NCBI RefSeq assembly: GCF_000711725.1
Contig: NZ_JONP01000003.1
Span: 1-64,000 of the forward strand
DNA: 64,000 bases
From: Roseomonas aerilata DSM 19363
Lineage (GTDB): Bacteria > Pseudomonadota > Alphaproteobacteria > Acetobacterales > Acetobacteraceae
Direction of reading: 5' to 3'
The notes below the pieces were generated by a model. That model was not told where the DNA came from. It worked only from the letters and a program-made list of their open reading frames with translations, and did not search any database. Numbering within the stretch: the first letter of the stretch is position 1; each line of letters opens with the position of its first letter. This document shows, piece after piece, positions 58,974 to 62,769 of this stretch. A program made the position numbers and the translations under genes.

Positions 58974-60068
58974 GTGATCGACATCCTCTCCCTTCTCATC
59001 GCGACCTTCCCCGCCAGCATGACGGCGGCCAACCTGTTCCTGCTCGGCCGGGCGGAGGGGGTGCCCGCGCCGGATACCCTCGTCTCGGTCCTCATCCCCG
59101 CACGGGACGAGGCGGCGAATATCGGCGCCTGCCTCGACGCCGCGCTCGCCAGCACGGGCGTCGCGGTCGAGGTGCTGGTGATGGACGACGGCTCGACCGA
59201 CGGCACCGCCGCGATCGTCGCCGCGCGGGCGGAGGCGGACCCGCGCCTGCGCCTCCTCCGCGCTCCGCCGCTTCCGCCGGGGTGGACGGGGAAGGTGCAT
59301 GCCTGCGCCCGGCTGGCCGAGGCCGCGCGGGGGACGCACCTGCTCTTCATCGACGCCGATGTGCGCCTCGCGCCCGACGCCGCCGCGCGCATGGCGGCCC
59401 ATGCCCGCGCGAACGGCCTGGCGCTCGTCAGCGGCGTGCCCCGGCAGATCCTGGGCTCGCTGGGGGAGGGGATCACGGTGCCCGCGATCAACCTCATGAT
59501 GCTCGGCTACCTGCCGGGGGCCGGCCGCGCCTTTACCGAACACCCCGCCATGGCCGCCGCCTGCGGCCAGCTCCTGATGGCCGAACGCGGTGCCTACGAG
59601 GCCGTGGGCGGCCACGCGGCCTTCCGCCACCGCTTGCACGACGCCATGGCCCTCTCGCGCAACCTGCGCGAGGCCGGTCGCCGGACGGAGGTGGTGGACG
59701 GCAGTCCCCTTGCCGAGTGCCGCATGTATTCCGGCTTCGCTGAGGCCTGGCGCGGCTTCATCAAGAACGCCCGCGAGGGTATGGCCACCCCCGCCGGCCT
59801 GCCGGTCTGGACGGTGCTGCTGGCCGGGCCGCATCTTCTGCCGTGGCTGCTGCTGCCGAGCCCCTGGGCTGTGGCGGCGCTGGTTCTTTCCTTTCTCACC
59901 CGCGCAGCGATCACGATCCGCGTGCGCGAACCGCTCTGGACCATTCCCCTGCATCCCCTGACCGTCGCCGTCGCCCTCGCCATCCAGTGGACTGCCCTCA
60001 TCCGCTCCGCCCTCGGTCGCCCCGCGGGATGGAAGGGTCGGGCCTATCAGCCGGCGGACGGGCTGTGA
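58974..60068 (+). CDS. Family 2 glycosyltransferase of the carotenoid cluster (CrtQ-like)
   Basis: 364 aa starting with GTG after GGGAGGA. The GT-A fold signatures are VSVLIPARDEAANIGACLDAAL, VLVMDDGSTDGTAAIVAAR and the DxD metal site LLFIDADVRLAPDA. The N terminus has one hydrophobic segment, and the C terminus has two to three (WTVLLAGPHLLPWLLLPSPW and beyond), so it is membrane-bound. It resembles CrtQ-type glycosyltransferases that glycosylate C30 carotenoid acids. The stop overlaps the GTG start of the HpnC-HpnD fusion gene (GTGA). Confidence 0.85.
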   Translation: MIDILSLLIATFPASMTAANLFLLGRAEGVPAPDTLVSVLIPARDEAANIGACLDAALASTGVAVEVLVMDDGSTDGTAAIVAARAEADPRLRLLRAPPLPPGWTGKVHACARLAEAARGTHLLFIDADVRLAPDAAARMAAHARANGLALVSGVPRQILGSLGEGITVPAINLMMLGYLPGAGRAFTEHPAMAAACGQLLMAERGAYEAVGGHAAFRHRLHDAMALSRNLREAGRRTEVVDGSPLAECRMYSGFAEAWRGFIKNAREGMATPAGLPVWTVLLAGPHLLPWLLLPSPWAVAALVLSFLTRAAITIRVREPLWTIPLHPLTVAVALAIQWTALIRSALGRPAGWKGRAYQPADGL

Positions 60069-61690
60069 GCGCGCAGATGGCCCCGGAGATGGAGGGGGTC
60101 GCCGCCGGGGCGCCGACGCGCGGGCCGGACAGCGAGAACTTCCCCGTCGCCTCCCGCCTGCTCTCCCCGGCGGTGCGGGCCAAGGTGCTCGCTTTCTACC
60201 GGGTGGTGCGCCTCTCGGACGACATCGCGGATAGCCCCGACCTCGACCCCGCCGAGAAGCTGCGGCGGCTGGACGCGATCGAGGCTGCCCTCGACGGCGC
60301 CCCTGGCGTCCCCGAGGCGGCGGCGCTGCGGGCGAGCGGCGCCGGGGTGGAGGAGGCGCGCGCCATGCTCACCGCCTTCCGCCGCGACTCCCGCAACGAG
60401 GGCTGTGAGGACTGGGCAGGGTTGGTGGACTACTGCGCCTATTCCGCCGTGCCTGTCGGCCGCATCCTGCTCCGCCTGCACGGGGAGGGCCCGGCGCCCC
60501 AGCCCGCGGCGGATGCGCTCTGCATCGCGCTCCAGGTTCTCAACCACCTCCAGGACATGGGCGAGGACCGCGCGCAGATCGGCCGCATCTACCTGCCGCG
60601 AGCCTGGATGAACGAGGTCGGGGGCGAGGCGGCGGTCTTCAACGAACCGGCGCCGCGCCGCGCCCTGCTCGACGCCTTGCTGGACCGCTGCGAGGCGCTG
60701 CTCGACATCGCGGCCGCCCTGCCGCACCGCCTGCAAAGCCGTCGCCTGGCCCTCGAATCCGCCACCACCATCGGCTGCGCGCGGCGGCTGCTGGCGCGGC
60801 TGCGCGCGGCCGACCCCATGGCCGGCCGCGTGGCGTTGACGAAGGCGGACGCGCTGGCGGCGCTGCTCGCCTCGCCGCGCCCGGCCTCCGACGCGGCGGT
60901 GGTGCGCGCGGCGGTCGCGCGGGCGGGCTCCTCCTTCTCCCGCGGCATGGCCTCGCTGCGCGGGGAGCGGCGGCGGGCGCTCTACGCCGTCTATGCCTTC
61001 TGCCGCGCGGTGGACGACATCGCCGACGGCGCCGCCCCCTTCACGGAGAAGCGCCGCTTCCTCGCGGAGTGGCGCGCGAAGCTCGACGCGCCCGACTGCG
61101 CCCTCTCGCGCGAACTGGCCTGGGCCCGGGCCCGCTTCGACCTGCCGCACTCAGAATGCATCGCCATGATCGAGGGCATGGAGACCGACGCCGCGCCCCG
61201 GCTGCGCCTGCCGGACGAGGCGGCGTTGGAACTCTACTGCCGCCGCGTCGCCGGCAGCGTCGGGGCCATGTCAGTGCGGATCTTCGGCGCGCCGGAGGCG
61301 GTGGAGTTCGGCCTCGCCCTCGGCCGCACCCTGCAGCTCGTCAACATCCTGCGCGACATCGACGAAGACGCGGAGCGGGACCGGGTCTACATCCCTCTCT
61401 CCTGGCTCGGCCCCGATGCCTCCCCGGCAGAGCTTCTCGAGCGCCCCGACCTGCACGAGGCCTGCCACCGCCTGCTCGGCCGCGCCGAAGCCGGGTTCGC
61501 GGCGGCCGAGGCCGAGCTGACCTCCGCCAATGCCGGCCCGCTGCGGCCCGCGCGGGTGATGATGTGGGCCTATCGCCGCATCCTCGACCGCCTCGTCGCC
61601 CGCGGCTTCCACCCCCCGCGCCTCCGGCCGCGGCTGGGCACGGCGGAGCGGGCGCGGCTGGCGGCGATGGCGCTCGGCTGGGGGGGATAA
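60065..61690 (+). CDS. HpnC-HpnD fusion (two trans-isoprenyl synthase domains)
   Basis: 541 aa from a GTG overlapping the upstream stop; ATG at 60077 is an alternative. Two squalene/phytoene-synthase domains lie in tandem. The first (about 20-270) is HpnC-like: SENFPVASRLLSP, DDIAD (52-56) and NHLQDMGED. The second (about 275-541) is HpnD-like: SSFSRGMASLRGERRRALYAVYAFCRAVDDIADG (Asp-rich site 317-321) and LVNILRDIDEDAERDRVYIP. HpnD makes presqualene diphosphate from two farnesyl diphosphates and HpnC turns it into hydroxysqualene (family knowledge). The usual separate genes are fused here in reverse domain order relative to the reaction sequence. No HpnE is recognised unless a CrtN-like protein replaces it. 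Confidence 0.9.
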   Translation: MSAQMAPEMEGVAAGAPTRGPDSENFPVASRLLSPAVRAKVLAFYRVVRLSDDIADSPDLDPAEKLRRLDAIEAALDGAPGVPEAAALRASGAGVEEARAMLTAFRRDSRNEGCEDWAGLVDYCAYSAVPVGRILLRLHGEGPAPQPAADALCIALQVLNHLQDMGEDRAQIGRIYLPRAWMNEVGGEAAVFNEPAPRRALLDALLDRCEALLDIAAALPHRLQSRRLALESATTIGCARRLLARLRAADPMAGRVALTKADALAALLASPRPASDAAVVRAAVARAGSSFSRGMASLRGERRRALYAVYAFCRAVDDIADGAAPFTEKRRFLAEWRAKLDAPDCALSRELAWARARFDLPHSECIAMIEGMETDAAPRLRLPDEAALELYCRRVAGSVGAMSVRIFGAPEAVEFGLALGRTLQLVNILRDIDEDAERDRVYIPLSWLGPDASPAELLERPDLHEACHRLLGRAEAGFAAAEAELTSANAGPLRPARVMMWAYRRILDRLVARGFHPPRLRPRLGTAERARLAAMALGWGG

Positions 61691-62743
61691 TAACCGTCCC
61701 GGTGAATGACCGTTTACGGCCTCTTGAGTCCTCCCGAACAAGGCCCGGACCTGGGGACATGGAGGGGGGTTCCGGGGCTTGCTACAAACCGGTGACGCCG
61801 CACCTTTTTCGGCCTAGCCGCCGGCCAGCTCCGCGTCGGCGCGTTCGGCGGCGAGTACGAAAGCCCTCAGCTTGGCGGCATCAAGGCGTCCGCTGGTTCG
61901 AACACCGGAGCACAGGTCCAGCCCAAACGGGCGCACCTGCCTTATCGCGTCGCGAACGTTGGCGGCGGACAAACCGCCAGCCAGGAAGACCGGCCTTTCG
62001 CTCGCCCTCACGAAGTCGGCGCTGACCGCCCAGTCATGGCAGCGGCCGGTGCCGCCAAGTTCGGCAACCACGGCATTAGGCCTGCCGGAGTCGAGCAGGA
62101 AGGCATGCACGTAAGGGCTGTACGCCGGGATCAACTTCAGGGCTTCCGGCCCTTCGACATGAATAACCTGCACTCGGCGCACATGAGGCTCCACCGCTGC
62201 CAGCCGTGCCGCCTCCACCGGAGCGATGTGCGAGACCACCTGCACGGTTGAAGGCCGAGTGGCCCGGATGTGCGCCGAGATGGTGTCCGCCGTTGTTTCG
62301 GAGGTCAGTAGGAAGGTCGCCACCGGTGGTGGCACCATGGCGGTGATTTCCGCAATCGTCCCGTCCGCGATGGGGCCAGGCCCCGAGGGCATGCGCGCAA
62401 CCAGGCCCAACGCGTCGGCGCCAGCCTCGATCGCGACCATGGCCTCCTCGACGGAGGAGATGCAGCAAACCTTGATCCGTGTCCTCATGGGAAAGCTCAT
62501 GTTCTTGCCTGACGCCGAGCGCAACGCTCGCTTCCAGGCTACACAGCCGACTTCACGAACGTGCTCAGGCCGGTTGGTAGCAGTTCCTCCGCCCCTCACC
62601 CAAATTGTCGGCGTCACCATACGGGCGCCCTCGAGCTGCCGCTCCGCCCCCGACCGGACCACACCATCAAGGGCGAACGCAGAGGGCTCGCAGTTGGGTC
62701 CGCTCGCAGGGCCGGAGCGGTCGTTCAACAGGGCGGTTATTAT
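61687..62743. mobile_element. 1.06-kb cassette with terminal inverted repeats, carrying a TrpF-like gene, no transposase
   Basis: The 26 bp at 61687-61712 and the reverse complement of 62718-62743 agree at 22 of 26 positions, with the first ten (ATAATAACCG) identical. TA dinucleotides sit at both edges (61688-61689 and 62741-62742), as after TA-target insertion by IS630/Tc1- or IS427-like transposases. The enclosed DNA looks lower in GC than the neighbours and encodes only the TrpF-like protein on the minus strand. The left end contains the stop codon of the HpnC-HpnD gene, and the right end lies 26 bp from the DsbA-like gene. It resembles a mobile insertion cassette or cargo-only element moved in trans. 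Confidence 0.62.
61814..62488 (-). CDS. TrpF-like phosphoribosylanthranilate isomerase homologue
   Basis: 224 aa from the ATG opening MRTRIKVCCIS; an in-frame ATG four codons earlier is possible. It is a TIM-barrel of the TrpF family: KVCCISSVEEAMVAIEAGADALGLV has the catalytic-type Cys, HAFLLDSGRP has the second active-site Asp, and GLDLCSGVRTSGRLDAAKL is the C-terminal phosphate loop (usual form DVSSGVE). Differences from standard TrpF (CC in place of CG, LCSGVRT) place it in a divergent paralogous branch that may not act in tryptophan synthesis. No trp genes are near. It is the only gene within the inverted-repeat-bounded cassette. Confidence 0.82.
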   Translation of the reverse strand: MRTRIKVCCISSVEEAMVAIEAGADALGLVARMPSGPGPIADGTIAEITAMVPPPVATFLLTSETTADTISAHIRATRPSTVQVVSHIAPVEAARLAAVEPHVRRVQVIHVEGPEALKLIPAYSPYVHAFLLDSGRPNAVVAELGGTGRCHDWAVSADFVRASERPVFLAGGLSAANVRDAIRQVRPFGLDLCSGVRTSGRLDAAKLRAFVLAAERADAELAGG

Positions 62744-62769
62744 GAGAGGGTGCGCGCCCTTCCGTTCCG

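What the first reader, a model, noticed from the sequence alone, without database searches (positions are those of the whole stretch)
61687..62743. TrpF-like gene carried inside a transposase-less cassette with 26-bp inverted ends
The first 26 bp and the reverse-complemented last 26 bp match at 22 positions, ten of them consecutive at the tips, with TA at both edges. Between them is a single metabolic gene of a divergent TrpF branch and about 230 bp of untranslated DNA before it. Cargo-only elements with an enzyme gene are uncommon. The HpnC-HpnD stop codon lies inside the left end, so the insertion appears to define the 3' end of that gene.
Basis: partly seen in the sequence, partly recalled or inferred. 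Interest (0 to 1): 0.75.

Follow-up and report, generated by a model that had tools for sequence, protein, structure and literature searches.

The report
TrpF-like gene in transposase-less mobile cassette
A 1-kb DNA cassette that carries a spare tryptophan-pathway-like enzyme gene, but no gene for moving itself, appears to have jumped onto the stop codon of a neighbouring gene, and it belongs to a family of such cassettes in Roseomonas and related bacteria.

Summary
In detail: the ends of 61687-62743 match at 22 of 26 positions, above all 40 shuffles. Similar ends bracket 7 other elements in 6 genomes, each with different cargo (a Thoeris-like TIR NTPase, aldo/keto reductase plus LysR, GDSL hydrolase, glyoxalase, unknowns). 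The target duplication is TNA (3 bp), not TA. In the window it is probably the TGA stop of hpnCD: right copy TGA, left copy now GGA, with TAA in the cassette tip as the new stop. Ten of ten kin hpnD loci lack the ends. In a sister MIC, 7 of 7 uninterrupted orthologues fit a single TNA. IS630-family copies in the same genus share TACCAA tips and TNA repeats (8 of 8 pairs), so an IS630-type transposase acting in trans is the likeliest mover. No transposase-bearing element with identical ends was found, and the window's own ends resemble IS630 ends only weakly. The cargo is a second, divergent but constrained TrpF. New variant of a known kind.

The parts
61688..62742 (.). Mobile insertion cassette body, 1055 bp, TAATAACC...GGTTATTA
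61688..61712 (+). Left terminal inverted repeat (downstream of the cargo gene)
62718..62742 (-). Right terminal inverted repeat (upstream of the cargo gene)
61685..61687 (+). Left copy of the target duplication, now GGA; probably the former TGA stop of hpnCD
   Evidence: kin G010 reads GGCTGGGGGTGA here
62743..62745 (+). Right copy of the target duplication, TGA
61814..62500 (-). Cargo: divergent TrpF-like (phosphoribosylanthranilate isomerase-like) gene, 228 aa if the ATG at 62500 is the start
62501..62717 (-). 217 bp upstream of the cargo gene inside the cassette; not shared with kin copies of the gene
   Evidence: homology to kin copies spans only the gene
59843..61690 (+). Upstream gene hpnC-hpnD (fused frame; its start is not settled); its stop TAA (61688-61690) is supplied by the cassette tip

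Best explanation
61688-62742 is a mobile insertion cassette: a non-autonomous DNA transposon made of two terminal inverted repeats around a cargo gene. A transposase supplied in trans, most likely of the IS630 family, recognised the ends (family consensus TACCAACCGCCCTGGTGAATGACCG) and joined the cassette to a TNA target, here the TGA stop of hpnCD, duplicating three bases. The left TGA later became GGA, and the TAA in the cassette tip now ends HpnD one codon later. The cargo is a second, divergent TrpF that keeps the Cys and Asp aligned with known isomerases. Shown: end family, three-base duplications, absence in kin, different cargo between the same kind of ends. Inferred: transposition in trans, the identity of the transposase (about 0.7), the order of the T-to-G change, enzyme function.
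For: End family: 4 sites in the own genome at up to 3 mismatches, 0 for the reversed control; 18 sites against 3 control sites in 60 genomes; a matrix leaving out the window finds both ends first. Eight two-ended elements, 700 to 3185 bp: the middle base of the TNA repeat is the same on both sides in 8 of 8, all three bases in 6 of 8. T stands at -2 in 26 of 29 ends, which no pattern that found them asked for. The R. pecuniae element interrupts a gene; 7 of 7 uninterrupted orthologues show a 2-nt gap against flanks joined with two extra bases, as one 3-bp target predicts. DNA shared between different elements lies within about 160 bp of the ends. G+C 0.656 in the element against 0.766 and 0.726 in its flanks. 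10 of 10 kin hpnD loci have no such end. IS630: 8 of 8 two-ended copies show identical TNA repeats beside TACCA tips; ten TACCAAC/TACCAG-type IS630 ends score 8.5 to 27.1 on the cassette matrix and the 13 non-window cassette ends 17.2 to 28.5 on the IS630 matrix, shuffled window 11.3 to 17.3.
Against: No element with a transposase gene and cassette-identical ends was found; mobility was not observed. On the IS630 matrix the window's own ends score 13.8 and 11.8 (first and third in the window), inside the range of the best hits of 5 shuffles (11.3 to 17.3), so the IS630 link runs through the other cassettes. The window's tip reads TAATAACC where the family has TACCAACC, and blastn found no similarity between this element and the other 13 stretches at E 1e-3. 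Its duplication is GGA/TGA, not exact. The closest kin, G010, has about 785 bp of other DNA at the same spot, and G009 and G008 have short but diverged spacers, so no clean empty site was seen. Reported IS630 elements duplicate TA, not TNA. Not every small ORF in the elements was searched for transposase.
Confidence: 0.86

Rival explanations
1. It is a cassette, but moved by another transposase family, for example an IS5-type (IS1031-like) enzyme.
For: TNA is the duplication I recall for the IS1031 group of IS5, whereas reported IS630 elements duplicate TA. IS5-type DUF4096 matches are abundant (175 in 7 genomes). No IS630 with identical ends was found.
Against: None of the 30 DUF4096 loci returned (30 of 175 matches) has an end above 9.3 on the cassette matrix, whereas IS630 loci reach 25.6 and carry TNA repeats of their own. 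145 DUF4096 matches and other families were not examined.
Confidence: 0.15
2. It is the remnant of an IS or transposon that lost its transposase and happened to keep the neighbouring TrpF gene; not part of a cassette system.
For: The window's ends have diverged from the family consensus and share no blastn similarity with the others.
Against: Seven other two-ended elements carry unrelated cargo between similar ends, with intact TNA repeats in 6 of 7, so cargo without transposase is the usual state here.
Confidence: 0.1
3. The inverted ends are chance or an unrelated palindrome, and the gene is an ordinary resident.
For: IR matches of 20 to 21 of 26 occur in some shuffles (7 of 40 at 20 or more).
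Against: A matrix from other loci finds these two ends and no others; kin lack the DNA; G+C differs.
Confidence: 0.02

Closest known systems
Mobile insertion cassettes: MIC231 of Bacillus cereus, mic-qnrD, mic-qnrS2 (PMC3913671, passages read)
   Same: Two imperfect inverted repeats around a passenger gene, no transposase inside, target duplication; mic-qnrD has 24-bp repeats with 6 mismatches. MIC231 is reported as mobilised in trans by the IS231A transposase.
   Different: Other ends; mic-qnrD has a 2-bp CA duplication, here TNA; several related cassettes with different cargo in one genus; IS231A is an IS4-family element (recalled), here IS630-type is inferred.
IS630 family insertion sequences, e.g. 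ISY100 (PMC2170065, passages read)
   Same: IS630 copies in this genus and in Rhodovastum have TACCAA/TACCAG tips and TNA repeats like the cassettes.
   Different: Reported IS630 elements carry a transposase gene and duplicate TA; this element has neither feature.
MITEs
   Same: Non-autonomous, inverted ends, target duplication.
   Different: MITEs are short and carry no gene (recalled); this one carries a conserved gene. Short MITE-like units with the same tip exist (L061).
TrpF, phosphoribosylanthranilate isomerase
   Same: PRAI domain, aligned Cys and Asp.
   Different: 125.3 bits against a cut-off of 215 in the best NCBIfam model; a canonical TrpF stands elsewhere in the genome (G000:C7:102313-102930).

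Membership tests
Mobile insertion cassette (MIC) | Imperfect terminal inverted repeats bracketing the unit | tested here: met
   22 of 26
Mobile insertion cassette (MIC) | Passenger gene and no transposase gene inside | tested here: met
   PRAI domain is the only Pfam match of the cargo; no other gene recognised in 1055 bp
Mobile insertion cassette (MIC) | Target-site duplication | tested here: inconclusive
   GGA/TGA in the window (2 of 3 bases); exact TNA in 6 of 7 other two-ended elements
Mobile insertion cassette (MIC) | Ends shared with an IS whose transposase moves it in trans | tested here: inconclusive
   Similar, not identical, to IS630 ends through the other cassettes; mobility not testable here
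IS630 family element | IS630-type transposase gene | tested here: not met
   No such gene in the cassette
IS630 family element | TA target duplication | tested here: not met
   TNA; 7 of 7 orthologous sites of a sister cassette fit one TNA
TrpF | PRAI domain with catalytic Cys and Asp | tested here: met
   Cys and Asp aligned with T. maritima TrpF 1lbm; their catalytic role and the organism are recalled
TrpF | Score above a curated TrpF equivalog cut-off | tested here: not met
   125.3 bits against 215
TrpF | Isomerase activity | not testable with these tools
   -

The most novel reading that the evidence does not exclude
An IS630-type lineage in Acetobacteraceae duplicates three bases (TNA) instead of TA and moves a family of one- or two-gene cassettes in trans: an integrase-free gene-shuffling system whose cargo includes a defence-like gene and metabolic genes, and whose TNA target lets it land on stop codons (TAA, TGA) without destroying the gene.
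Probability: 0.45. Interest if true: 0.65.

Novelty: new variant of a known kind. Interest (0 to 1): 0.5.

Why it matters
For some reported MICs no mover is known (for mic-qnrS2 no suitable transposase was found; PMC3913671). Here one genus holds several related cassettes with different cargo, a testable three-base target rule, and candidate transposases in the same cells. That lets cargo capture and mobilisation in trans be tested directly. A TNA duplication at IS630-type copies, if confirmed, would depart from the TA rule reported for that family.

Tried and rejected
TA as target duplication: rejected for the cassettes, because it would need TNATATNA targets, while 7 of 7 uninterrupted orthologues of the R. 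pecuniae site fit a single TNA. It was not tested on empty sites of the IS630 copies.

IS1182 as mover: an IS1182-like transposase (by eye) lies beside one end in R. nepalensis (L045:9550), but its own TGTTGAAAAAG ends lie inside the cassette end (by eye). IS5/DUF4096 as mover: 30 of 175 matches scanned, none with such ends. IS630/DDE_3: 61 matches in 5 genomes; 30 loci plus 20 further regions scanned, no cassette-identical end.

Ends in plasmids: queries of 43 and 44 nt gave 1 and 3 records, all partial (context); a 39-nt query gave 32 records, of which I looked at two, Methylosinus and Rhodovastum. Ends in viral contigs: 0 exact matches. Class-wide pattern: 2 of 385 genomes; the second (G535) has no second end nearby and looks like coding DNA by eye. 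One ancestral place for the trpF-like gene: five contexts compared pairwise; only G005 and G014 share theirs.

Rows dropped or selected: the eight IS630 pairs are those of 31 loci (L140-L170) in which both tips fit T.ATACCA[AG] 900-1400 bp apart; L165 repeats L155; loci with one tip or none were left out. T and A there are by construction, the equal middle base is not. The IS630 matrix uses ten ends of TACCAAC/TACCAAG/TACCAG type, two of them duplicates of others; the TACCAAGTC-type ends were left out. The seven gene orthologues are those whose match reached the insertion point; G003, G008, G009, G011 and G013 gave only other or shorter matches, G001 and G004 none. The 29 ends include weak ends and ends on two MAG contigs; the patterns favoured ATA at the tip.

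Full report
What is there. The ends of 61687-62743 match at 22 of 26 positions, ten in a row at the tip; the best such pair in 40 shuffles was 21. Between them lies one gene, a PRAI-domain protein of 228 aa if the ATG at 62500 is used. The upstream frame is HpnC fused to HpnD, both equivalog models over their cut-offs; it stops at 61690, inside the left end.

The ends belong to a family. In the window's own genome the end pattern gives 4 sites at up to 3 mismatches and none with the reversed pattern. In 60 genomes (own, genus, family, class) a looser pattern gives 18 sites in 7 genomes against 3 control sites; the single sites in G001 and G022 look like chance. In 249 genomes of the family 7 have sites, the control none. 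Among 84,980 species genomes a degenerate pattern gave 10 stretches: Roseomonas nepalensis (4), Roseomonas sp. SXEYE001, R. pecuniae, Belnapia moabensis, Belnapia sp. F-4-1 and two MAG contigs. Equal contig lengths identify G009, G004, G007 and G157 with R. nepalensis, SXEYE001, R. pecuniae and Belnapia sp. F-4-1. The consensus is ATACCAACCGCCCTGGTGAATGACCG. A matrix made without the window's ends puts its two ends first in the window.

Eight elements have both ends (lengths as TACC...GGTA): window 1055, G000:C19 3185, G007:C4 898, G004:C51 1067, G009:C73 2549, G009:C54 2450, G008:C81 700 (its left end scores low), G128:C1096 747. Cargo: TIR-domain NTPase with a ThsB match of 1e-52; aldo/keto reductase plus LysR regulator; GDSL hydrolase; glyoxalase; TrpF-like. 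The proteins tested from G007, G004 and G008 matched no Pfam family. No transposase was recognised inside, though not every small ORF was searched. Pairwise blastn of 14 elements or single-ended stretches finds similarity between elements only within about 160 bp of the ends; the window element gave no hit at E 1e-3. Further single ends lie beside other genes, for example a GNAT acetyltransferase and a LysE transporter, but without a second end these are not shown to be cargo.

Target rule. With the element written as TACC...GGTA, the flanks are TNA on both sides: middle base equal in 8 of 8, all three equal in 6 of 8. The two exceptions, the window (GGA/TGA) and G007 (GCA/TCA), differ at the first base of the left copy. 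Over 29 ends T stands at -2 in 26, and the middle base is mixed. One further end pair, only 106 bp apart on a MAG contig (L061), does not share the middle base. The R. pecuniae element splits a gene that I read as GFA-type (by eye). With the flanks joined so that two extra bases remain, 7 of 7 orthologues in other genomes show a 2-nt gap there, as one TNA predicts.

The window site. G010, 96% identical over the query, reads GGCTGGGGGTGA; the window reads GGCTGGGGGGGATAA. So the target was probably the hpnD stop TGA: the right copy persists, the left is now GGA, and TAA in the tip stops the frame. G010 carries about 785 bp of other DNA at the same spot, with a gene that I read as SRPBCC-like (not searched); G009 and G008 have short spacers. 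None of 10 kin hpnD loci has a site above 6.6 on the end matrix. Of 59 other genomes none holds the element; outside the gene only two short weak matches were found. The element's G+C is lower than that of its flanks.

The mover. A Rhodovastum plasmid IS630 has TACCAACCGCCC and TACCAGCCGCCC tips with TCA on both sides. IS630 copies in R. nepalensis (L141), in R. pecuniae (L142 and L154, one tip each) and in the window's own genome (G000:C68, with stops inside) have tips of the form TACCAA..GCCT. Eight of eight two-ended IS630 copies show identical TNA repeats. Published IS630 elements duplicate TA. Cross-scoring links the two sets of ends, but the window's ends alone do not exceed shuffles on the IS630 matrix. 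I hold the IS630 assignment as inference, about 0.7.

The cargo. Ten of ten genomes searched (partly chosen because one search had hit them) have a canonical TrpF; six (G000, G001, G005, G008, G014, G036) have the divergent one too, in differing contexts except G005 and G014. It also lies on two sphingomonad plasmids, without such ends within 8 kb (best 17.1, one site each). Differences to five homologues fall mostly at third codon positions, for example 40, 25 and 113 in 222 codons, which indicates constraint. A 155-bp remnant of a second copy lies at G000:C8:241669-241823.

Literature. Passages were read in PMC3913671, PMC3129680 and PMC2170065. Searches for IS630 with TNA, MIC with IS630, Roseomonas with IS630 or MITEs and TrpF with transposon passengers listed nothing that by title or abstract start describes this; other listed papers were not opened. 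Most subscription journals are not in the library and ISfinder was not available.

Noticed in passing
L020:3172-5646 (cassette G000:C19:41727-44913): A sister cassette in the same genome carries an 824-aa protein with a ThsB-like N-terminus, a TIR domain and an AAA-type NTPase region, apparently a defence gene as cassette cargo.
   Followed up: partly
L020:5982-6980: A TniQ-domain gene (Pfam) lies directly beside that cassette.
   Followed up: no
L044:5554-5710 and L065:1832-1988 (R. nepalensis): Two stretches share 157 bp at one end at 94% and then diverge into different genes. Many cassettes have one end continuing like CTCAGGGTGGGAAGCGG and the other like GTCCCGACCCGAAACGGA.
   Followed up: partly
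L045:6190-6840 (G009:C54): The cassette G009:C54 abuts an ORF that looks like an IS5-type transposase; the ORF's stop TAA, read on the minus strand, coincides with the right TNA repeat, a second case of a stop codon as apparent target.
   Followed up: partly
L061:1242-1347 and L062:3161-3186 (MAG contigs): The same tip with different inner DNA; in L061 two inverted tips stand 106 bp apart, a MITE-like unit.
   Followed up: no
L072:2286-3069 (G010): The closest kin genome has a different gene segment at the same hpnD 3' spacer, without recognisable ends; G001 and G006 also have over 1 kb of other DNA between the two flanks.
   Followed up: no
G000:C8:241669-241823: A 155-bp remnant of a trpF-like gene, 83% identical to the cassette cargo, without recognisable ends. 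Shorter matches to the same 3' part of the gene stand in G009 and G030.
   Followed up: partly
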